Positions 2,912-30,930 of a DNA stretch of 30,930 nt are shown piece by piece. The position numbers and the translations under genes were made by a program. The stretch is from a virus. The stretch spans positions 1 to 30,930 of IMG/VR virus record IMGVR_UViG_3300025076_000087; one strand, given 5' to 3'. Under the pieces are notes generated by a model. The model worked only from the letters and a program-made list of their open reading frames with translations, searched no databases and was not told the origin of the DNA. Position 1 is the first letter of the stretch. The number at the start of each line of letters is the position of its first letter.

Positions 2912-3504
2912 CGCGGGGAAAATGCGTGATAGTGGACGATGAGGATTTTGAGATATTGAGCGGATTTAACTGGGCATTTAAGCCCAACAATTATCAGTCC
3001 AGGGGATACGCAATTCGCAGCTTGCCCCGGCAACGTGGAAAACCACGACACACGCTCTCAATGCATCGCCAAATTCTTGAGGTTAATGATGATGTGAAAA
3101 CAGACCACATAAACGGAAACGGTTTAGACAATCGTCGCGCCAACCTTCGTATAGCGACCACTCAGACAAACGCGTTCAATCGAGGCAAACCTAACGTAGT
3201 GTGTACATCAAAGTACAAAGGCGTTTTGCGACGTAAGGGAAAGAACGTTTGGGAGACGAGAATTAAGTATAACGATAAAGCAATACATCTTGGCGTTTTC
3301 CTAACAGAGCGAGAAGGCGCTATGGCATACAATTATGCCGCTCAACTTATGTTTGGAGAATTTGCCAGATTAAACGAGAATGTGCCGGAACCTTCACAAA
3401 ATGTAAAGATGAGGGTTTATGAACGGTGCATGAACATGGTTGTCCGTCGAAACTGGCGTCCGGTAACGGGCGTTTTTTCTTTTGGAATTGAGGATTCAAG
3501 ATGA
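2893..3504 (+). CDS. HNH endonuclease with AP2 DNA-binding domain (homing type)
   Basis: An HNH_3 domain at about residues 65-100 (DHINGNGLDNRRANLRI, then TQTNAFNR) is followed by an AP2/ERF-type domain (YKGVLRRKGK ... IHLGVFLTEREGAMAYNYAAQLMFGEFARLN). This pairing is typical of free-standing homing endonucleases in phages. Relatives usually begin M-K-x-I-x-L-T-x-G-K-x-x-x-VDDEDF; here the frame reads I-K-T-L-Q-L-T-R-G-K, with ATT at 2893 placed 9 nt after GAGGAGGTG (2875-2883). I therefore take ATT as the start. TTG at 2908 is the first conventional alternative but has no ribosome site. The gene overlaps the methyltransferase upstream and, by 4 nt, the one downstream. About 30 residues follow the AP2 domain with no recognisable match. 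Confidence 0.82.
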   Translation: MKTLQLTRGKCVIVDDEDFEILSGFNWAFKPNNYQSRGYAIRSLPRQRGKPRHTLSMHRQILEVNDDVKTDHINGNGLDNRRANLRIATTQTNAFNRGKPNVVCTSKYKGVLRRKGKNVWETRIKYNDKAIHLGVFLTEREGAMAYNYAAQLMFGEFARLNENVPEPSQNVKMRVYERCMNMVVRRNWRPVTGVFSFGIEDSR

Positions 3505-5423
3505 ATAGACAGCTTACCCTCGGCTCGCTTTTTGACGGCTCGGGCGGCTTCCCGCTTGGGGCCGTTTTAAATGGGATCATACCGGTCTGGGCCTCAGAGA
3601 TAGAACCTTTCCCAATAAGGGTTACAACCAAGCGCCTGCCAACTATGCGGCATTACGGCGATATCAATAAAATAGACGGCGCACTCATTCCGCCTGTGGA
3701 CATCATCACGGCGGGATTTTGCTGTCAGGATTTATCCGTGGCTGGCAAACGCGCCGGGCTTCAAGGTGCAAGGTCAGGGCTGTTTTACCAGATACCTCGG
3801 ATCATTAAAGAGATGCTCGCCGCTACCGACAACGAATACCCGAAGTTCGCCGTGCTGGAGAACGTGCCGGGTATGTACTCAAGCAATAATGGCTTGGATT
3901 TTCAGGAGGTACTCAATGAACTCATTAAAATTAAAGACAAAACCCTGTCAGTACCTTTGCCTGAAAAGAGCAAATGGTCAACTAGCGGCGAGATTGTGGA
4001 AGACGGTTTCTCAGTCGGTTGGCGAACGCTTGATGCTCAATTTTGGGGAGTCGCCCAGCGCCGCCGCCGTTGTTACATTGTCATCGATTTTACAGGCGAA
4101 CGTGCCGGAAAAATACTATTTGACGAGTCGCGCCTGTCAGGGAATCCTCCGCAGGGCGGGTTCCCGTGGCAAACAACTGCCGGAGGTCTTGCGGCTGGCT
4201 CTGGAAGCCCAGTCAGCGTCTTAAACGACCAAGGCGGCGCCTATATGTCAGTCACGGAAGAAATAACCGCTACACTCCGCGCCGAGGAACACGGGCATCA
4301 GCCTATCGTGTTCGAGCCGGGAGCAGCATCGAGGCTTGGCGGCCATGTGTGGCAAGGCGAACCCACCGGCGCGCTCCGTGCCGACATGGGCGACAATCAA
4401 CTGGCAGTAGTGATAGAAAACCATCCCACCGATTCAAGAATAAAAATTGACGAGAGCGGAACGGTGCAAACCCTCACGGAACGTATGGGAACCGGCGGCG
4501 GCAATGTCCCGCTCGTTATGAACGAGAGACAGTATGCCTTGACGGTCGGTGAGGACGTGGCAGACACCCTCACCTGCATGGACTTCAAGGGAACGCAGTG
4601 TGTATTTGAGACGAAAACTCTGAAAATCTGTTGCGGCTGCAAAGGAGGTGGCAATGGTGCGCTCATCCAAGACAATAAATCGGCGACGCTGTCCACAAGC
4701 AACGAGCAGACCGTGTTCGTGCCGAAGGTTTACGGCATCTGTTCCAAAGACAGCAATTCCATGAAATCGGCAAACCCGCACAGCGGTATTTATGAAGCGG
4801 AAACTTCCCGAACGCTGGATAAAAACGGCGGCAACCCAGCCTGCAATCAGGGTGGCATTGCTGTTGTGGAGCCTGTGGTGTTTACGCAGAACCAGCAACA
4901 GACATATATCTTGCAAGGAAGTATGATTGGGCGCGAAGAAAAGAACGGCCCGCAGGGTGATGGCATAAATGAGGATGTGTGTTTTACTCTTAATACTGTT
5001 GACCGCCATGCCACGGTCTATTCCATGACCACGTGCTGTTTCCCCTCTGTGTATGAAGAAAAAGCATCCACGCTGATGGCGCGGGACTATAAGGACACGC
5101 AAATGGTGAACCGATCGCATTACATTATCCGCAGACTCACCCCGACCGAGTGCGCCTTGCTTCAAGGCTTCCCGCCAGATTGGTGTGCGGGGCTTGGAAC
5201 AATTGAGCCAGCCGATGGGGATATCGCTTTTTGGTCGGAGGTCTGGGAAACCCACCGTCTTACTATGGGTACATCTACGAAATCAAAGAGCCGTAACCAG
5301 ATAGTCAAATGGTTAAAAGACCCATGTAGCGATGCGGCGGCTTATAAAATGTGGGGTAACGGCGTGGCTTTACCGTGCGTGGTATTTGTCCTCGGCGGGA
5401 TTGTGTCATACACACAAGGGTAA
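3501..5423 (+). CDS. DNA (cytosine-5-)-methyltransferase
   Basis: A 640-aa C5-cytosine methyltransferase. Motif I is LFDGSGGFPLGA (10-21); motif IV is GFCCQDLSVAG (72-82) with catalytic Cys75; motif VI is ENV (120-122); motif VIII is QRRRR (186-190). Motifs IX and X are near the C-terminus (RRLTPTECALLQGFPPDW and MWGNGVALP). The usual Pro before the catalytic Cys is replaced by Cys. About residues 250-550, the target-recognition region, is long and made of repeated units of a 'T-L-x-x' turn followed some 10-20 residues later by a hydrophobic V-V/V-F strand; I count about eight. It overlaps the preceding gene by 4 nt. Its likely role is self-protection of phage DNA. Recognition sequence cannot be read. 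Confidence 0.93.
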   Translation: MNRQLTLGSLFDGSGGFPLGAVLNGIIPVWASEIEPFPIRVTTKRLPTMRHYGDINKIDGALIPPVDIITAGFCCQDLSVAGKRAGLQGARSGLFYQIPRIIKEMLAATDNEYPKFAVLENVPGMYSSNNGLDFQEVLNELIKIKDKTLSVPLPEKSKWSTSGEIVEDGFSVGWRTLDAQFWGVAQRRRRCYIVIDFTGERAGKILFDESRLSGNPPQGGFPWQTTAGGLAAGSGSPVSVLNDQGGAYMSVTEEITATLRAEEHGHQPIVFEPGAASRLGGHVWQGEPTGALRADMGDNQLAVVIENHPTDSRIKIDESGTVQTLTERMGTGGGNVPLVMNERQYALTVGEDVADTLTCMDFKGTQCVFETKTLKICCGCKGGGNGALIQDNKSATLSTSNEQTVFVPKVYGICSKDSNSMKSANPHSGIYEAETSRTLDKNGGNPACNQGGIAVVEPVVFTQNQQQTYILQGSMIGREEKNGPQGDGINEDVCFTLNTVDRHATVYSMTTCCFPSVYEEKASTLMARDYKDTQMVNRSHYIIRRLTPTECALLQGFPPDWCAGLGTIEPADGDIAFWSEVWETHRLTMGTSTKSKSRNQIVKWLKDPCSDAAAYKMWGNGVALPCVVFVLGGIVSYTQG

Positions 5424-5462
5424 GTGGCTGCTTTTCCTTGATATTTATTATCACATAATCTC

Positions 5463-5488
5463 TTGCTATTATAGCCTTCTTAAGTGAT
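5463..5488 (+). promoter_or_regulatory. Left half of a phage control region, cut by the IS element
   Basis: These 26 bases match 8307-8332, upstream of the amidoligase, at 20 of 26 positions, beginning with the identical TTGCTATTA and ending AAGTGAT against GAGTGAT. Sequence on the far side of the IS (from 7119, ATATGTAATCACCGGAAGG) resumes the match to 8333 onward. The region therefore looks like a regulatory leader of the 7181 gene that the IS separated. The gap 5424-5462, after the methyltransferase stop, holds nothing else I recognise. Confidence 0.5.
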
Positions 5489-5559
5489 CTGCCATGAAAT
5501 AAATTACACAATAACGAATGAAACCTGTTCTTGCAACTCACGACATAGTAAAATTGAAT

Positions 5560-5705
5560 GGCAGGATAATGTCGACATTTATCTAAGATTCTGAACTTGT
5601 AAGTGATCTTGACAGGGCTTGCTTTGGAGCACAGTTACATGTTGCCCTTTGCGTAATTCGCTAAGGAATAGCACGAGTATTATATTTCAAATTTCTCTTA
5701 GCAAG
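5560..5705 (+). ncRNA. Candidate IS110 bridge RNA (seekRNA)
   Basis: Limits are approximate. A first hairpin, GATAAT-GTCGAC-ATTTATC, lies at 5565-5583. A target-type segment follows: TAAGTGAT at 5600-5607 is identical to the host bases left of the insertion (5481-5488), and TTACATGT at 5635-5642 can pair with the host bases on the right (ATATGTAA, 7119-7126, one G-T wobble). Between them TGCT-TTGG-AGCA (5620-5631) can form a stem-loop. A donor-type loop follows, closed by GCTAAG (5660-5665) and CTTAGC (5697-5702) and containing GTATTATAT (5677-5685), identical to the IS right end (7112-7120). The order left-target, right-target, left-donor is that known for IS621. The right-donor guide is weak (CAAAT, 5688-5692, 4 of 5 pairs). 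Confidence 0.6.
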
Positions 5706-5740
5706 CCATTCTGCATATTATATTTAAGGGGATTGATAAT

Positions 5741-6982
5741 ATGCGAGATTTATTGGAAGTATGTTGCGGATTAGATGTACACAAGGAGGCTGTAGTGGCT
5801 TGCCTGCTTAAGGGAACGCTGGATCAGGAGCCAACGTCGGAGATTAGAGAATTCCCCACATTGCTAAGCGGTTTGGAAATGTTAAAATCATGGTTAATTG
5901 AGAATAAATGCCGCGAAGTAGCAATGGAAAGCACAGGTGTTTACTGGTTTCCAATTTACAATGTTTTGGAAGCAGTATTTGAGGAAGAAGGCGGCATTCA
6001 TATGACGGTAAGCAATCCACGTCACATGAAGAATGTCCCCGGCAAAAAGACGGATGTCAACGACGCCAAGTGGATTGCTAGTTTGCTTCGTGCGGGATTA
6101 TTGAATGCAAGTTATATACCGCCAAGGCAGGTTCGTGAACTTCGTGACTGGACACGTTATCGCAAGACTATTGTACAGGAGATGACCGGTCACAAAAATC
6201 GGGTGGAGAAATATTTACAGCAGTGCGGTTTCAAGCTGTCCACTTTTTTGAGCGATATTTTTGGACAGTCTGGCATGTCGTTGATTCATAAGCTTTGCGA
6301 GGTGGGATATATTTCGCCAGATGATGTTCTATCTCATTTGCGTGGTACAGCAAGAAATAAGCTTGAAGATATTAAGCTAGCTGTGAACGGTCGCTTAACT
6401 GAGCATGAACGGAGTTTTTTATCTCTACTGACACGTAATCTTGCGAACTGCCTTCAGGAGATTGCAGAAATTGAAGCGAAAGTTATGGAGTGTGCCGGAC
6501 AATTTGATGCAGCTATTCGCTTGGTGGAGACAGTCCCTGGCGTACAGCGTTTAACAGCAGTTACGATTATTTCCGAGCTTGGGACAAACTTGAGAATGTT
6601 CCCGACTGCGGGGCATCTTTGTTCTTGGGCTGGTATGTGTCCGGGTAATAACGAGAGCGCTGGAAAGAAAAAATCCACTCGGTTGTCAAAAGGTAACATA
6701 CATCTTAAAAGTGTCCTCTGTCAATGTGCGTGGGCAGCAACACGAAGTAAAAAGACATATCTGCGTGACTGGTATTGGAAGCTTAGCCGTCGAAGAGGGA
6801 TGAAGAAAGCAGTTATTGCACTTGGGCGTAAGCTTCTAACAATCATTTACCATATGCTCACCACAGGCGAATTGTATGACGAAGATCGTTACGGAAGTGC
6901 AAAAAATAAGCAGGAAGAAATCCGAAAAAATAGACTTATTGCTGAAGCACAAAAACTTGGATTGAAGTTCGTTCCCGCATAA
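5741..6982 (+). CDS. IS110-family transposase/recombinase
   Basis: A 413-aa RNA-guided DEDD recombinase. The N-terminal RuvC-like domain shows the four acidic residues in context: CCGLDVHK (Asp12), AMESTGVYW (Glu63) and KKTDVNDAKW (Asp105, Asp108). The C-terminal transposase_20 domain has VETVPGVQRLTAVTIISELG (263-282) and a serine-bearing segment LCSWAGMCPGNNESAGKKKS (293-312), where Ser306 is the likely nucleophile. Both catalytic domains look intact, and the length is at the upper end for the family. The start is ATG 5741, preceded by AAGGGG about 10 nt upstream. It acts with the bridge RNA encoded just upstream. It is unrelated to the phage programme. Confidence 0.95.
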   Translation: MRDLLEVCCGLDVHKEAVVACLLKGTLDQEPTSEIREFPTLLSGLEMLKSWLIENKCREVAMESTGVYWFPIYNVLEAVFEEEGGIHMTVSNPRHMKNVPGKKTDVNDAKWIASLLRAGLLNASYIPPRQVRELRDWTRYRKTIVQEMTGHKNRVEKYLQQCGFKLSTFLSDIFGQSGMSLIHKLCEVGYISPDDVLSHLRGTARNKLEDIKLAVNGRLTEHERSFLSLLTRNLANCLQEIAEIEAKVMECAGQFDAAIRLVETVPGVQRLTAVTIISELGTNLRMFPTAGHLCSWAGMCPGNNESAGKKKSTRLSKGNIHLKSVLCQCAWAATRSKKTYLRDWYWKLSRRRGMKKAVIALGRKLLTIIYHMLTTGELYDEDRYGSAKNKQEEIRKNRLIAEAQKLGLKFVPA

Positions 6983-7054
6983 AGTATTCACAATCAATAA
7001 TTCAACATCCTGATATATGGCGGGTATTTCGTCGTTGATACCGGTCTATTTGTC

Positions 7055-7083
7055 TTGACTTCGTTTCATTAGTACGCCTTAAT
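7055..7083 (+). promoter_or_regulatory. Possible outward-facing promoter in IS right end
   Basis: TTGACT (7055-7060) is followed after 17 nt by CTTAAT (7078-7083, four of six consensus bases). It points toward the 7181 gene, whose own control region the IS interrupts. Only the spacing and the -35 box support it. Confidence 0.3.
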
Positions 7084-7118
7084 GTGTACGAGGGCTGGTG
7101 GGTATGGTTTCGTATTAT

Positions 7119-7154
7119 ATATGTAATCACCGGAAGGCAAACAAAAGCCTTCGG
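7119..7154 (+). promoter_or_regulatory. Right half of the interrupted control region, with hairpin
   Basis: ATATGTAATCACCGGAAGG continues the similarity to the amidoligase leader (8333 onward). GGAAGGC (7132-7138) can pair with GCCTTC (7147-7152). Before the insertion another GCCTTC (5474-5479) lay about 35 nt upstream and could have competed for GAAGGC, giving two mutually exclusive hairpins, an attenuator-like layout. The IS has removed that competitor from the vicinity. Confidence 0.35.
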
Positions 7155-7180
7155 AATTCATGAAAACGGAGGCCAAGCTA

Positions 7181-8059
7181 ATGAAAATCACCTACAATCT
7201 AACAGGCGCAGAGCGCAAATCACTGGTTGAGGCTATCAGTCAGGAACTAACCGCCCCGAAAAAATATCTCGGAGCTTCGACATTTGCCTACGAGGTGGGC
7301 GGCTACCACATCGACAAGTACGGCGTGGTTACAGGTCCTGACAACCTTGACCTTGAGGCAGGCCTAAATGCTCTCCACGGCTTTGAACCTGTGGAACGCG
7401 AATATGACAACCCCGATACCTACGAGAGCGGGCTTGGCGGGATGAATGCGAACCCCTCTATTGAAGAGCTAAACGAGCTTTGGGCAGAAAGCGAAGTGCG
7501 CCGCATGAAACTTGAAGACGCAAACGTCCCCGATTACTCAAATCATGGGCAGTACGGCGGGGATGATATTTCTGCCTTTGACGAAATGCAAATTGCCGAG
7601 GAAGAGGAAGTCGACCCCGACGACCACTGCGACACTTTGACTATCGAAATGCCGCTTGCGGGCTTTACCGATGCGGCGATTGAGAACCTCACCCGGCTAA
7701 TTGAGAGCAAAGCCGCCCTCATTAAAAAGGCCATCGGGGTGGACTCTCTCCCTATCGAGCGCACGGAAACGACACTCAGGTTCCCATGGTTTAAGTTTGG
7801 CATAGACAGCGCAACAGTCGCCGCCTACTCCCGCTTTATCGGCGCGCTGTATGCGGCGGCAAAAGTCCAGAAGCGCGTCACCGGCAGGGAAAAGCCGGTG
7901 GAGAACGAAAAGTACGCCTTTCGTGTGTTCCTCCTCCGCCTCGGCTTTGTGGGCGACGAGTATAAGGATGCACGGAAAATTTTATTGAAAAATCTCTCCG
8001 GAAGCTCGGCTTTTAAGAGCGGCGCCCGGTCTAAGGCGGAGGTGGACGCCGATGCCTAA
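7181..8059 (+). CDS. Phage/mobile-element 'virulence protein' family, function unknown
   Basis: A 292-aa protein of the family often labelled 'virulence protein' in Firmicutes prophages and mobile elements; no activity is established that I know of. It begins MKITYNLTGAERKSLVEAIS, has an acidic, low-complexity middle (~residues 70-150), then a conserved half with LTIEMPLAGFTDAAIENLTR, ERTETTLRFPWF and a C-terminal ENEKYAFRVFLLRLGFVGDE...LSGSSAF segment. The last ~40 residues are clearly homologous to the C-terminus of the amidoligase at 8383. ATG 7181 is chosen over ATG 7160 because AACGGAGG (7165-7172) lies just before it. It overlaps the next gene by 8 nt. The IS separates it from its original leader. 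Confidence 0.8.
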   Translation: MKITYNLTGAERKSLVEAISQELTAPKKYLGASTFAYEVGGYHIDKYGVVTGPDNLDLEAGLNALHGFEPVEREYDNPDTYESGLGGMNANPSIEELNELWAESEVRRMKLEDANVPDYSNHGQYGGDDISAFDEMQIAEEEEVDPDDHCDTLTIEMPLAGFTDAAIENLTRLIESKAALIKKAIGVDSLPIERTETTLRFPWFKFGIDSATVAAYSRFIGALYAAAKVQKRVTGREKPVENEKYAFRVFLLRLGFVGDEYKDARKILLKNLSGSSAFKSGARSKAEVDADA

Positions 8060-8301: not shown

Positions 8302-8373
8302 TTGACTTGCTATTACTTCCCTCCTGAGTGATATATGTACATACCGAAAGGTACACTACACCACTCAAGGAGG
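8302..8373 (+). promoter_or_regulatory. Structured leader/promoter region of the amidoligase gene
   Basis: Promoter-like elements TTGACT (8302-8307) or TTGCTA (8307-8312), the latter 17 nt before GATATA (8330-8335), are present. CCTCCTGAGTG (8320-8330) pairs with CACTCAAGGAGG (8362-8373) over 11 bp with one bulged A, which would bury the ribosome site of the amidoligase. Inside the 31-nt loop, TACC-GAAA-GGTA forms a small hairpin with a GNRA tetraloop. If transcription starts upstream of 8320 this is a translational switch. If the -10 at 8330 is used, the upstream arm is not transcribed and the inverted repeat would be a DNA site. The region is paralogous to 5463-5488 plus 7119-7137. Confidence 0.5.
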
Positions 8374-9993: not shown

Positions 9994-10037
9994 TTGACCA
10001 ATTGGTCAAGTCGGTGTTATATTGACTACGTGGTCAA
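9994..10037 (+). promoter_or_regulatory. TetR-type twin operators overlapping a promoter
   Basis: TTGACCAATTGGTCAA at 9994-10009 is a perfect 16-bp palindrome. A second, imperfect copy TTGACTACGTGGTCAA lies at 10022-10037, with extended arms ATATTGAC and GTCAATAT at 10019-10040. The first TTGACC also serves as a -35 box, with TATATT 18 nt later (10018-10023) as a -10, so binding at either site would block transcription. The TetR gene two positions downstream is the obvious ligand, making the cassette self-repressed. An imperfect hairpin with CTTTT-GAC-AAAAG lies just upstream (9961-9983). Confidence 0.75.
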
Positions 10038-10059
10038 TATTTTTTTGGAGGTGATATTA

Positions 10060-10791
10060 TTGGATAGCTCAAAAAAGTTTCAAAAAAATCTTTTGTCGAC
10101 AAGTGGGATGGCAAAAGAAGAGATGAACAATTTAATCAGGAAAATTGTGATCAGATTTTCATTTTTTCCAGTTTTTCTGGGATTGATTACATTGTTGCCT
10201 GCCGGTACATTAAATTATTGGCAAGTATATGCTTATATTGCCGTTCTGGTTATACCCATGTTATTTGTTGTTTCATATTTTCTCAAAAATGACCCGCAGT
10301 TTCTGGTGCGGCGCATGAAAATGAAAGAAAAGGAACAACAACAAACGATTATTCAAATAGCATTCTCTTTTATATTTTTATCCAGTTACGTTGTTTCTGG
10401 TTTGGATCGGCGTTTTGGTTGGTCTGATGTGCCGGTTGAGATCATTTTTATATCGCTTTTTGTCATTTTGTTGGGATATCTGCTAATCTTTCTTGTTTTC
10501 AGGGAAAATTCATATGCTTCTCGCATTATCGAGGTAGAAGAAAACCAAAAAGTGATATCGACCGGTCTTTACGGTATTATCCGTCATCCGATGTATTTCG
10601 GTATGTTAATAATGTTTATCCCGACGCCTGTTGCACTTGGCTCATACTGGGGATTAATTCCTGTGGCAACTATACCATTGGCGTTAATCTTCAGGATATT
10701 GAATGAGGAAAAAGTGTTGAGCAGGGACTTGCCGGGATACTGGGAATACTGCCAAAAAACCAAATATCGCCTGATTCCATTTTTATGGTAA
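10060..10791 (+). CDS. Isoprenylcysteine carboxyl methyltransferase (ICMT)-like membrane protein
   Basis: A 243-aa integral membrane protein with several hydrophobic spans (about residues 25-45, 50-70, 95-115 and 130-150, plus a C-terminal hydrophobic stretch). The C-terminal SAM-binding signature of the ICMT/PEMT superfamily is present: VISTGLYGIIRHPMYFGMLIM, then EEKVLSRDLPGYWEYCQKTKYRLIP. Bacterial members methylate uncharacterised small molecules or lipids. The TTG at 10060 is chosen because GGAGGTGAT (10047-10055) precedes it; ATG 10108 is a weaker alternative. The gene is visibly AT-richer than the phage genes around it and lies behind TetR operators, so I read it as acquired cargo. Confidence 0.82.
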   Translation: MDSSKKFQKNLLSTSGMAKEEMNNLIRKIVIRFSFFPVFLGLITLLPAGTLNYWQVYAYIAVLVIPMLFVVSYFLKNDPQFLVRRMKMKEKEQQQTIIQIAFSFIFLSSYVVSGLDRRFGWSDVPVEIIFISLFVILLGYLLIFLVFRENSYASRIIEVEENQKVISTGLYGIIRHPMYFGMLIMFIPTPVALGSYWGLIPVATIPLALIFRILNEEKVLSRDLPGYWEYCQKTKYRLIPFLW

Positions 10792-10862
10792 TGAAGGTCG
10801 TGATGCGGTGCTTTTATCCCTAACGCGGTTGAGGTATATTTTTCTTAGCTTGATAGCTTTTT

Positions 10863-11516
10863 ATGGAAGGGACAATCAAATTGATTCCACATCCCTCATT
10901 CCTAAATCTTGAACATAAAAAACAGGAAGTTTTGCGAAACGTATGCCTTGAGGAATTTGCCCGGGCAGGCTACAGCAGCGCCTCTACAAATGCCATGTGC
11001 AAGAACGCAGGGATATCGAAAGGCTTGCTGTTTTATTACTTCGGAAGCAAAAAGGAGCTGTTTATATATCTCGTTGATTATTGCACGATAATACTAAGGG
11101 ACAGTTTTTACGATGGGTTAGTTCTTGATAGGGAAAACATCTTTGAGCGCATGATTAATCTCACTATGCGCAAGTGGTCATTATATGAAAAATATCCATT
11201 GGAATATGGTTTTCTGGCAAAGCTGCTTCTGGACTCTCCTCCCGATATCGAACAAAAACTTATCCAAATGAAGAAAGATAACTTAGAACGTTCCATGCAA
11301 ACAATTATGCATAACCTTGATCTTTCGGGTTTAAGGCCTGACATTGACAAAGCAAAAGCTATTGAATTGGTACTTTTCGTCATTGAAGGGTTCAAAGCTA
11401 AGAATATAGAAAAATACAAGATGAATCCCAGGCCATTGAGCGAGCTTAACGACGAGATAATGCTTGAAATGAAAGAATATTTAAGTATGTGCCGTATTGG
11501 GATATGTGTCCGGTAA
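10863..11516 (+). CDS. TetR/AcrR family transcriptional regulator
   Basis: A TetR-family repressor of up to 217 aa. The N-terminal helix-turn-helix domain is classical: EEFARAGYSSASTNAMCKNAG followed by ISKGLLFYYFGSKKELF. The C-terminal ligand domain is divergent, as is normal. The start is uncertain: ATG 10863 has no clear ribosome site, whereas TTG 10881 follows GGAAGGG (10865-10871) and gives the IPHPSFLNL... start typical of close relatives. It lies 71 nt after the ICMT-like gene and is AT-rich like it. The twin palindromes at 9994-10037 are its probable binding sites, giving autoregulation. The inducer is unknown. Confidence 0.9.
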   Translation: MEGTIKLIPHPSFLNLEHKKQEVLRNVCLEEFARAGYSSASTNAMCKNAGISKGLLFYYFGSKKELFIYLVDYCTIILRDSFYDGLVLDRENIFERMINLTMRKWSLYEKYPLEYGFLAKLLLDSPPDIEQKLIQMKKDNLERSMQTIMHNLDLSGLRPDIDKAKAIELVLFVIEGFKAKNIEKYKMNPRPLSELNDEIMLEMKEYLSMCRIGICVR

Positions 11517-28055: not shown

Positions 28056-29351
28056 ATGGGGCGAGTCATCACAAAAACAGTCCCTGCGGCGCCATCCCTT
28101 GCAAAAAGACAGAGGGTTGCCGCCTATGCCCGAGTATCAAGCGGCAAGGAGGCGATGCTCCAGTCGCTTGCTGCTCAAGTCAGCTACTACAGCGCACTGA
28201 TCCAGCGTCGGGCAGACTGGGAATATGCCGGAGTCTACGCGGACGAAGCGCTGACGGGAACAAAAGACAGTCGCCCGGGACTCCAGCGCATGCTCGCCGC
28301 CTGCAGGGACGGAAAAGTTGACATGATCATCACCAAGTCAATCTCGCGCTTTGCCAGGAATACGGTGACGCTGCTTGAGACTGTACGCGAACTGAAACTG
28401 CTTGGTGTTGACGTATATTTTGAGGAGCAGAACATCCATTCCATGAGCGGAGACGGTGAGCTTATGCTGACTATCCTCGCGTCCTATGCTCAAGAGGAAA
28501 GCCTCTCGGCGAGCGAGAACTGCAAATGGCGTATTCGTAAACAGTTTGAAAATGGGGAACTTGCTGGACTCAGATTTATGTTTGGCTACCGAATTGTTAA
28601 GGGCAAGGTGGAGATCGACACAGAGCAAGCCGCCGTTGTCCGCATGATTTTTGAGGACTATATCGGCGGCATGGGTGGCGGCAAAATTGCAAAGAAGCTA
28701 AAAGATATGAATGTGGCTACCGTGCACGGCGCTACTTGGGATGCTGAGCGCGTGATCGTTATCCTCAAGAATGAAAAATACGCTGGAAACGCACTGCTAC
28801 AGAAAAAATATGTAGCCGACCATCTGAGCAAAAGGAAGATCTGGAACAAGGGCGCTCTGCCGCAGTATTTTGCAGAAGGAACTCACCCTGCCATCATTGA
28901 CGCGGCAACCTTTGATAGAGCGCAGGCAGTCATGGAGGAGCGGCGCAGGTCTTGCGGCACAAAGGGTGATACCGGTAGCCGATACCCCTTCAGCGGTGTT
29001 ATCCTCTGCGTGAACTGCGGCAAGAAGTATAAGCGGAAAAGTAGTGGTGAAAAAGCCGCTTGGCAGTGTGCAAGCTATTTGCAGGAGGGTAAAGCAGCCT
29101 GCCCCGCTAAGCAAATACCGGAAGCTGTGCTTTGCTCAACGGGTGCCGAGGTTCTCGGTCTTGACGAGTTTGAGGCTGATATATTCAAAGAAAGAATTGC
29201 GGAAATCAGGGTAACGGAGTTTAACACACTGCTCTTTGAGTTCTGCGACGGCCATGCAATAGAAAAGGTCTGGCAGGACAGGTCACGACGGGAAAGCTGG
29301 ACGATTGAGATGCGCCAGGCGGCTTGTGAAAAAGCGAAAGGGAGGCAGTAA
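28056..29351 (+). CDS. Large serine recombinase (resolvase-type), first of a pair
   Basis: A 431-aa serine recombinase. The catalytic N-terminal domain starts VAAYARVSSGKEAML with Ser28 as nucleophile, and includes IITKSISRFARNTVTLLE and LTILASYAQEES. The recombinase domain (~165-270) has FMFGYRIVKGKVEIDTEQA and ILKNEKYAGNALLQKK. A zinc ribbon follows: CVNCGKKYKRKSS...WQCASYLQEGKAACPAK. Unlike its partner it ends soon after the ribbon, with little sign of the coiled coil used for synapsis control. Start ATG 28056 has AACGGAGG before it. It is followed after 1 nt by the second recombinase. Confidence 0.92.
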   Translation: MGRVITKTVPAAPSLAKRQRVAAYARVSSGKEAMLQSLAAQVSYYSALIQRRADWEYAGVYADEALTGTKDSRPGLQRMLAACRDGKVDMIITKSISRFARNTVTLLETVRELKLLGVDVYFEEQNIHSMSGDGELMLTILASYAQEESLSASENCKWRIRKQFENGELAGLRFMFGYRIVKGKVEIDTEQAAVVRMIFEDYIGGMGGGKIAKKLKDMNVATVHGATWDAERVIVILKNEKYAGNALLQKKYVADHLSKRKIWNKGALPQYFAEGTHPAIIDAATFDRAQAVMEERRRSCGTKGDTGSRYPFSGVILCVNCGKKYKRKSSGEKAAWQCASYLQEGKAACPAKQIPEAVLCSTGAEVLGLDEFEADIFKERIAEIRVTEFNTLLFEFCDGHAIEKVWQDRSRRESWTIEMRQAACEKAKGRQ

Positions 29352-29352
29352 A

Positions 29353-30930
29353 ATGGCGTCAAGCGTAAGGGTTATCCCGGCAAGCGTTCGCCACCACTCT
29401 GCCCATGGTGCGCCACTATCCGCCAAGCGAAGAGCTGCGGCTTACGCTAGAGTTTCCACCGACAGCGAAGAGCAAATGACCAGTTACGAGGCGCAGGTAG
29501 ACTATTACACCAAGTACATCAAGGAACGTGCCGACTGGGAGTTTGTACGGGTCTACACGGATGAGGGTCTCAGTGCTACAAATACCAAGAAGCGCAACGG
29601 TTTTAAGCAGATGGTTGCCGATGCATTGGACGGGCAGATTGATTTGATCATCACAAAATCAGTCAGCCGCTTTGCGAGGAATACGGTGGATAGCCTTGTG
29701 ACGGTGCGTCAGCTTAAGGAAAAAGGCGTGGAGGTTTACTTTGAAAAAGAAAACATTTACACGCTGGACAGCAAGGGCGAACTGCTCATCACGATAATGT
29801 CGAGCCTTGCGCAGGAAGAAAGCCGCTCCATCTCAGAGAATGTCACCTGGGGTCAGCGCAAGCGCATGGCGGATGGTAAGGTTAACTTGCCATACGGTCA
29901 GTTCCTCGGCTACGAAAAGGGCGAGGACGGACTGCCTCAGATTGTGGAGTCCGAGGCTCTGATTGTACGCATGATATTTCGGCTGTTCGTAGAGGGCAAA
30001 ACACCATCTGCTATTGCTAGGCAGCTTGCCGGACAAGGTATTCCATCACCTGCGGGAAAAAAGACCTGGCAGGTTGCTACGGTAAAGAGCATTCTGGGCA
30101 ACGAGAAATATAAGGGCGATGCGCTTCTCCAGAAGAAATTCACTGTGGATTTCTTGACAAAAATGCGGAAGAGCAACGAGGGAGAGGTTCCGCAGTATTA
30201 TGTCCAGAACAGCCACCCTGCCATTATCGAGCCGGATGAATTCGATGCGGTGCAGGCGGAAATTGAGCGGCGCAAGGGTCTTGGCAGGCCGTCTGGTTGC
30301 GGCAGCCCTTTCTCAGCGAAGATTGTCTGCGGCGATTGCGGTGGGTTTTACGGCTCCAAGGTCTGGGGTTCAAACACCAAATATCGCCGGATCATCTGGC
30401 GGTGCAATGAGAAGTACAAGGGCGGCAAGAAGTGTAAAACTCCGCACGTAACTGAGGATGATGTGAAACAGCGATTTCTGGTGGCGTTCAACACTCTGAT
30501 GGGCAGCCGGGAGGAACTGCTCACCAACTGCCGCCTCGCACAGCAGGTTTTATGCGACTACTCGGAGATTGATGGTGAACTTGAGGAACTTAGGCGAGAA
30601 ATCGAGGTGGTCACAGAGTTGTCGAAAAAGGCAATCTACGAGAGCGCGAGGGTTTCTGTCAGCCAAGATGAGTGGAGTGAGCGCAACAGCGGCTATCTGG
30701 AGCGGCACCGCAAGGCCACGGAGCGGATAGCGGAACTTGAGAAGCTGAAGCGTGAACGGCAGAGCAAATTCCTGATGCTTGAGGGTTTTGTCAGGGGTAT
30801 TGAATCATGCCCGCTGGTTTTGGAGGAATTCGATGAAAAGCTATGGGCGGTGTCGGTGGAGAAGATTGGGGTAATGCTGGACGGGAGGATGGTGTTTTAC
30901 TTCAAGGATGGCACGGAAATTGTGGGCTAG
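29353..30930 (+). CDS. Large serine recombinase (integrase), second of a pair
   Basis: A 525-aa serine integrase. The catalytic motif is AAAYARVSTDSEEQM with Ser35; IITKSVSRFARNTVDSL and SSLAQEESRSISENV follow. The recombinase domain (~165-290) includes ILGNEKYKGDALLQKKFTVDFLT. The zinc ribbon is CGDCGGFYGSKVWGS...WRCNEKYKGGKKC. A coiled coil (~415-480: DGELEELRREIEVVTELSKK and RHRKATERIAELEKLKRERQ) precedes a final strand. ATG 29353 is set by GGGAGGCAG just upstream. The gene is complete, and its stop is the last base of the window. Such enzymes integrate phages at att sites; an attachment site is expected just beyond the window but is not visible. Confidence 0.94.
   Translation: MASSVRVIPASVRHHSAHGAPLSAKRRAAAYARVSTDSEEQMTSYEAQVDYYTKYIKERADWEFVRVYTDEGLSATNTKKRNGFKQMVADALDGQIDLIITKSVSRFARNTVDSLVTVRQLKEKGVEVYFEKENIYTLDSKGELLITIMSSLAQEESRSISENVTWGQRKRMADGKVNLPYGQFLGYEKGEDGLPQIVESEALIVRMIFRLFVEGKTPSAIARQLAGQGIPSPAGKKTWQVATVKSILGNEKYKGDALLQKKFTVDFLTKMRKSNEGEVPQYYVQNSHPAIIEPDEFDAVQAEIERRKGLGRPSGCGSPFSAKIVCGDCGGFYGSKVWGSNTKYRRIIWRCNEKYKGGKKCKTPHVTEDDVKQRFLVAFNTLMGSREELLTNCRLAQQVLCDYSEIDGELEELRREIEVVTELSKKAIYESARVSVSQDEWSERNSGYLERHRKATERIAELEKLKRERQSKFLMLEGFVRGIESCPLVLEEFDEKLWAVSVEKIGVMLDGRMVFYFKDGTEIVG

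What the first reader, a model, noticed from the sequence alone, without database searches (positions are those of the whole stretch)
5489..7120. IS110 bridge RNA whose guide segments match both junctions of its own insertion
Seen: in the left non-coding end, TAAGTGAT (5600-5607) repeats the host bases before the insertion (5481-5488); TTACATGT (5635-5642) can pair with the host bases after it (ATATGTAA, 7119-7126, one wobble); GTATTATAT (5677-5685) repeats the IS right end (7112-7120) inside a loop closed by GCTAAG/CTTAGC. Known: IS110-family recombinases use a bridge RNA with left/right target guides, then left/right donor guides, all covering a dinucleotide core. Inference: core AT, element 5489-7120, empty site TAAGTG-AT-ATGTAATC. 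The order and positions agree with the IS621 model. The right-donor guide is poor (4 of 5 pairs).
Basis: partly seen in the sequence, partly recalled or inferred. Interest (0 to 1): 0.82.

Follow-up and report, generated by a model that had tools for sequence, protein, structure and literature searches.

The report
IS110 element aimed at phage motif
A bacterial jumping gene in this phage carries a small RNA that spells out both where it inserts and its own end, and relatives with the same aim have landed in the same conserved phage control-like sequence; the mechanism is a known kind, but the guide segments sit in the RNA in the opposite order to the best-studied example.

Summary

(1) Uninterrupted phage relatives read GAGTG-AT-ATATGTAATC, so the AT cores are 5487-5488 and 7117-7118. 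Bases 7119-7120 are host; the element is 5489-7118.

(2) The left target guide (5600-5607) and left donor guide (5677-5683) are confirmed: both change together with flank and end across diverged copies.

The supported one lies upstream of the left guide, 5575-5582 (ACAUUUAU), pairing with core plus right flank 7117-7124 at 7 of 8 positions.

The right-before-left order matches that reported for IS1111 seekRNAs, although this RNA lies in the left end as in IS110 types. The two bases after the left guide match the element's first two bases in nearly all clades.

The target is a conserved intergenic phage motif, probably hit repeatedly. Function is inferred; nothing was tested at the bench.

The parts
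5462..5488 (+). left half of the conserved phage target motif CTTGCTAT...AAGTG-AT; left target, core AT at 5487-5488
   Evidence: same motif uninterrupted in L084/L085/L086/L090/L163 and 60+ further places
5489..5740 (+). IS left end (non-coding), holds the predicted bridge RNA
   Evidence: empty-site comparison; alignment of homologous left ends
5557..5719 (+). predicted bridge RNA, minimum extent
   Evidence: covariance model R1 and hits upstream of IS110 genes; single-sequence fold z = -2.0
5561..5567 (+). outer stem P1, 5' strand (pairs 5708-5714)
5570..5573 (+). target-loop stem, 5' strand UGUC (pairs 5611-5614)
   Evidence: 36 of 36 pairs standard in 9 sequences, 12 of 362880 permutations as good (the printed L009 span is not the strand scored)
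5575..5582 (+). right target guide proposed here, ACAUUUAU; pairs top strand 7117-7124, 7 of 8, core included
   Evidence: best segment in most copies; 2 of 5040 permutations as good; independent copy L022 8 of 8
5600..5607 (+). left target guide UAAGUGAU, identical to 5481-5488
5608..5609 (+). CU, handshake-like extension of the left target guide; identical to the first two bases of the left end (5489-5490)
   Evidence: 16 of 16 matches over 8 clades with changes at both positions, 24 of 40320 permutations as good, all ties
5611..5614 (+). target-loop stem, 3' strand GACA
5616..5623 (+). donor-loop stem P2, 5' strand GGCUUGCU (pairs 5700-5707)
   Evidence: 42 of 42 standard pairs over 6 clades, every position changed on both sides somewhere
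5634..5640 (+).
   Evidence: no covariation with right target or right donor
5646..5666 (+). hairpin P3 (5646-5653 / 5659-5666)
5677..5683 (+). left donor guide GUAUUAU, identical to the right end 7112-7118
5684..5685 (+). AU after the left donor guide; equals right target bases 7119-7120 in this copy
   Evidence: true here and in L002-type copies, not general (756 of 5040)
5700..5707 (+). P2 3' strand AGCAAGCC
5708..5714 (+).
5741..6982 (+). IS110 recombinase, 413 aa
   Evidence: PF01548 E 1e-28 and PF02371 E 2e-22; NF033542 IS110 family RNA-guided transposase E 4e-80
6983..7118 (+). IS right end; left donor GTATT 7112-7116 plus core AT 7117-7118
7119..7128 (+). right target (host): ATATGTAATC, right half of the phage motif
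   Evidence: empty site in L084/L085

Best explanation
The element (5489-7118, 1630 bp with one core) is an IS110-family insertion that arrived by bridge-RNA-guided, conservative recombination at an AT core. Its left end encodes a bridge RNA: a closing stem P1 holds a target loop (stem UGUC/GACA; right target guide ACAUUUAU, hairpin, left target guide UAAGUGAU, then CU) and a donor loop (stem P2; GUUACAU, hairpin P3, left donor guide GUAUUAU). [quoted passage not shown] The recombinase joins the circular element (right end-AT-left end) to the target. The target is a conserved, promoter-like phage intergenic motif (CTTGCTAT-N9-12-AGAGTG-AT-NN-ATGTA), so the element is in effect a phage-directed IS. 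Shown computationally: borders, core, left guides, fold, covariation. Inferred: expression, RNA-protein binding, circular intermediate, recombination activity, promoter nature of the motif.
For: Recombinase family; IS621 and ISCro4 recombinases as sequence relatives. Empty sites. Same site used by diverged copies, 62-64% aa. Guide-flank covariation with permutation controls and partly independent copies: L022 8 of 8, L013 6 of 8, L018 6, L020 3.5. Fold covariation, recovered by single-sequence folding. Covariance-model hits directly upstream of recombinase genes in Alicyclobacillus, where the guides differ from those here and match that element's own, different target at eight sites.
Against: No right donor guide was identified. 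The right target guide has one mismatch (7120), is weak in L211, L008 and L020, and its segment was chosen after looking; the four later copies alone are not decisive (2 of 24 permutations at least as good). Few independent clades (7-8) and few copies close to the window element. No expression data. The best neighbour with the empty site is about 84% identical, not isogenic.
Confidence: 0.85

Rival explanations
1. One reading: right target guide at 5635-5642, after the left target guide.
For: UUACAUGU can pair with 7119-7126 in this copy, and the L002-type RNA pairs partly in the same +4 register (offset 4: 93 of 5040 permutations as good).
Against: At the core register it does no better than swapped flanks (822 of 5040); the +4 register excludes the core; it rests on the tandem ATATAT of this site; the upstream segment does better and keeps the core.
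Confidence: 0.12
2. The insertion is an old one inherited with the phage lineage, and the shared site of W and L002-type copies reflects common descent, not RNA-guided retargeting.
For: All closest copies but L005, L209 and L228 sit in the same gene gap.
Against: The gene right of the site is 82-85% identical to IS-free phages L084-L088 but only 44% to IS-bearing L003, whereas the IS proteins of W and L003 are 64% identical. Most phages with the gap lack the IS. L209 and L228 use the same motif sequence in other settings.
Confidence: 0.1
3. The repeats are short coincidences and the site is chosen by the protein or by a factor bound to the motif, without RNA guidance.
For: The target motif is conserved and could bind a regulator.
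Against: Guide segments change with unrelated targets in relatives (TTTTC-AA, CATA-AG, GGTTA-AG) and with the element ends; stems show compensatory changes.
Confidence: 0.03

Closest known systems
IS621 bridge RNA and recombinase (IS110 group; PMC11208160, PMC11208158)
   Same: DEDD RuvC plus Tnp-domain recombinase, long left end with structured RNA, target and donor loops, bottom-strand left guides and a top-strand right guide that include a dinucleotide core, insertion at the core without longer duplication
   Different: 413 aa against 328 aa; core AT (relatives AA, AG) against CT; right target guide before left target guide; handshake-like pair follows the left guide and matches the right donor, whereas the IS621 handshake guides follow the right guides and match the left sides; no clear right donor guide
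IS1111-family seekRNA (PMC11187229)
   Same: top-strand complement precedes bottom-strand match in the RNA
   Different: here the RNA lies upstream of the recombinase gene, the right end is short, and no 11-13 bp subterminal inverted repeat was seen
IS110-type seekRNA studied in PMC11187229
   Same: RNA upstream of the recombinase gene
   Different: reported order is bottom-strand match first, the opposite of what is found here

Membership tests
IS110 family | DEDD RuvC-like domain plus Transposase_20 domain with catalytic serine | tested here: met
   PF01548, PF02371, NF033542 above cut-off; D12, E63, D105, D108, S306 invariant in the alignment; D105/D108 and S306 line up with IS621
IS110 family | insertion at a dinucleotide core shared by target and ends | tested here: met
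   empty site and junction table, core AT
IS110 group (RNA in the longer left end) | structured RNA upstream of the recombinase gene with covarying left target and left donor guides | tested here: met
IS621-type bridge RNA | left target guide 5' of right target guide | tested here: not met
   right guide that covaries lies 5' of the left guide
IS621-type bridge RNA | right donor guide pairing with core and left end | tested here: inconclusive
   no segment covaries
IS621-type bridge RNA | CT core | tested here: not met
   core AT, relatives AA and AG; IS621 tolerates AT in the laboratory (PMC11208158)
IS1111 group | longer non-coding region downstream of the gene | tested here: not met
   252 bp upstream, 136 bp downstream
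IS1111 group | subterminal inverted repeats of 11-13 bp | tested here: not met
   by eye in the end sequences only a short ATGAAA/TTTCGT similarity; no dedicated search was run
bridge RNA / seekRNA | RNA is expressed and bound by the recombinase, and directs recombination | not testable with these tools
   needs RNA-seq, binding and recombination assays

The most novel reading that the evidence does not exclude
A clade of left-end (IS110-type) bridge RNAs with mirrored guide order: the target loop reads right guide, hairpin, left guide, then a two-base handshake that pairs with the right donor on the opposite strand from IS621. This suggests a mirrored strand-exchange order, within an element clade that repeatedly targets a conserved phage promoter-like motif.
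Probability: 0.55. Interest if true: 0.6.

Novelty: new variant of a known kind. Interest (0 to 1): 0.5.

Why it matters
If right, guide order is not fixed by the IS110/IS1111 split, and the handshake pairing found in IS621 has a mirror-image counterpart, which bears on which strand is exchanged first and on how such recombinases are programmed. It also gives a natural case of an RNA-guided mobile element whose guide is set to a sequence shared by many phages, so that the element can spread from phage to phage with its target always present.

Tried and rejected
Rfam gave no match in the window. Segment 5634-5640 tested as right donor guide, no support beyond the core complement. Right donor guide at 5713-5718 (GCATAT) set aside: GC is the end of stem P1, and the equivalents in relatives do not covary with the left end. 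A pseudoknot between an upstream GGGCA and UUGCCC was considered and dropped when P1, the target-loop stem and P2 explained all sequences. A CT core (as in IS621) was considered because the left guide is followed by CU; excluded by the empty sites. A general match of the two bases after the left donor guide with the right target was tested and rejected (756 of 5040). RNAalifold on the raw alignment gave only part of the fold. Close relatives were sought in 397 genomes of one family, giving few new copies; relatives could not be drawn for the virus record itself. Sigma-70-type scan of 5380-7200 found nothing above chance.

Full report
Setting. The window is a 30.9 kb virus record with terminase and other phage genes. 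The gene at 5741-6982 is an IS110 recombinase (PF01548, PF02371, NF033542), related to IS621 (8wt6, E 4e-10) and ISCro4. It lies between a cytosine methylase gene (3501-5423) and an unnamed phage gene (7160-8059).

Borders. Phage contigs L084 and L085 match the window from 7117 rightwards at 84% and carry no IS...CCTGAGTGATATATGTAATCACCGG. Set against the window junctions ...TTAAGTGAT|CTGCC and GTATT|ATATATGTAATC, the bases shared by both sides are AT, so the cores are 5487-5488 and 7117-7118. Other uninterrupted phages have two free bases after this AT: CT in L086, GT in L090, TA in L163. In related IS copies the two bases after GTATTAT also vary: TA, TT, AA.

Related copies. Genome and virus collections gave copies at 62-64% protein identity (L002-L007, L209), partial copies L204 and L228 found by their left ends, and a sister set at about 48-53% (L179, L180, L184, L200-L203, L211; L210 44%). 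Alicyclobacillus fastidiosus carries several copies in one genome. Most close copies sit in the same methylase-side gap of other phages. The gene right of the gap in the window is 82-85% identical to IS-free phages but 44% to IS-bearing L003, so repeated insertion is more likely than descent.

Guides. The junctions of 21 copies were tabulated. The left target guide (5600-5607) and left donor guide (5677-5683) are the best positions of the whole RNA for identity with left target plus core and left donor plus core. Swapping flanks among clades destroys the match: 12 of 40320 and 4 of 5040 permutations reach the observed value, and these are exchanges between clades of equal sequence. Scanning three regions showed that the segment 5' of the left target guide pairs best with core plus right target, and at the same homologous place in most copies: ACAUUUAU here (7 of 8 with 7117-7124), ACAUACAU in L209, CGCACCUU in the sister set (pairs AA-GGTGC), CGCCCCCU in Alicyclobacillus (pairs AG-GGGGC). 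With fixed segments 2 of 5040 permutations are as good. The segments were chosen after inspection, so four further copies were scored afterwards: L022 8 of 8, L013 6, L018 6, L020 3.5; as a set of four these are supportive but not decisive (2 of 24 permutations at least as good).

Handshake-like bases. The two bases after the left target guide equal the first two bases of the element in all eight clades (CT, CT, CA, CG, CG, CG, AC, AC). Copies read later: AC/AC in L013, AC/AC in L020, UU/TT in L041, one of two in L022. In IS621 the handshake guides follow the right guides and pair with bases left of the core (PMC11208158). Here the pair follows the left guide and matches bases right of the core, the mirror image. 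The matching test for the two bases after the left donor guide fails in general (756 of 5040), although it holds in the window copy.

Fold. Stems P1 (5561-5567/5708-5714), P2 (5616-5623/5700-5707), P3 (5646-5653/5659-5666) and the target-loop stem (5570-5573/5611-5614) are supported by compensatory change: P2 has 42 of 42 standard pairs with every position changed on both sides somewhere, the target-loop stem 36 of 36 over nine sequences. The strands were registered by hand. In one search the printed span for L009 is not the strand pair intended (the script found an earlier GAGT); the intended strand is the GAGT after AAGACG. On the raw alignment the fold scores above all 500 shuffles and above slid versions in covariation, and after realignment much more so, though that alignment leans towards the structure. 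The window RNA folded alone gives the same stems, z = -2.0.

Breadth. The covariance model finds the RNA just upstream of recombinase genes in Alicyclobacillus and in L022 at E 0.01-0.2, where the position makes the weak scores credible.

Target. The motif CTTGCTAT-N9-12-AGAGTGAT-NN-ATGTA occurs in more than 60 distinct forms in the phages fetched and in at least 120 stretches of viral contigs, where the scan stopped at its limit. The window has a second, empty copy at 8306-8339. Its spacing and place before genes look promoter-like; that is an inference, and no sigma-70-type scan supports it (one search covered only 5380-7200).

Comparison. IS621 has left before right target guide, a CT core and the core in all four guides (PMC11208160, PMC11208158). 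Siddiquee et al. (PMC11187229) report that the top-strand complement comes first in IS1111 seekRNAs and second in the IS110 type they studied. The window clade has its RNA in the left end like IS110 types but the order of IS1111. I did not find this combination in the passages I read; the diverse structures in the figures of PMC11208160 could not be seen, so precedence is not excluded.

Verdict. A genuine member of the IS110 family working like a bridge-RNA system, probably with mirrored guide order. The identity of the right donor guide remains open.

Noticed in passing
window 8306-8339; L084-L169 and L233-L312: Conserved phage intergenic motif CTTGCTAT-N9-12-AGAGTGATATATGTA, often followed by a GCCGAAAGGC-like hairpin, one to three copies per phage contig; probably a phage promoter or regulator site.
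   Followed up: partly
L232 1-3700 (Petralouisia muris contig, coverage 360 in its title): Two identical tandem 1847 bp units of methylase 3' end plus IS; the inner junction joins the IS right end GTATTAT to AAAATGTGGGG inside the methylase gene (GAGTAT-AAAATGTGG in relative L131), a place resembling the target. Suggests recombination of the right end with a secondary site, or an assembly artefact.
   Followed up: partly
window 28056-29351 and 29305-30930: Two large serine recombinases, adjacent and overlapping by about 47 bases in different frames, at the end of the record.
   Followed up: no
window 9994-11516: A predicted membrane methyltransferase (PEMT/ICMT-like) and a TetR-type regulator lie between phage genes, just before the terminase; look like bacterial cargo.
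   Followed up: no
L228/L231: IS copy at the same target sequence next to a gene that reads like an ICE or prophage excisionase; contig ends inside the IS, so its right side is unknown.
   Followed up: partly
L202 1288-1497: Sister-type copy whose left end is diverged before the guides while the donor loop is intact; possibly a recombinant or decaying left end.
   Followed up: no
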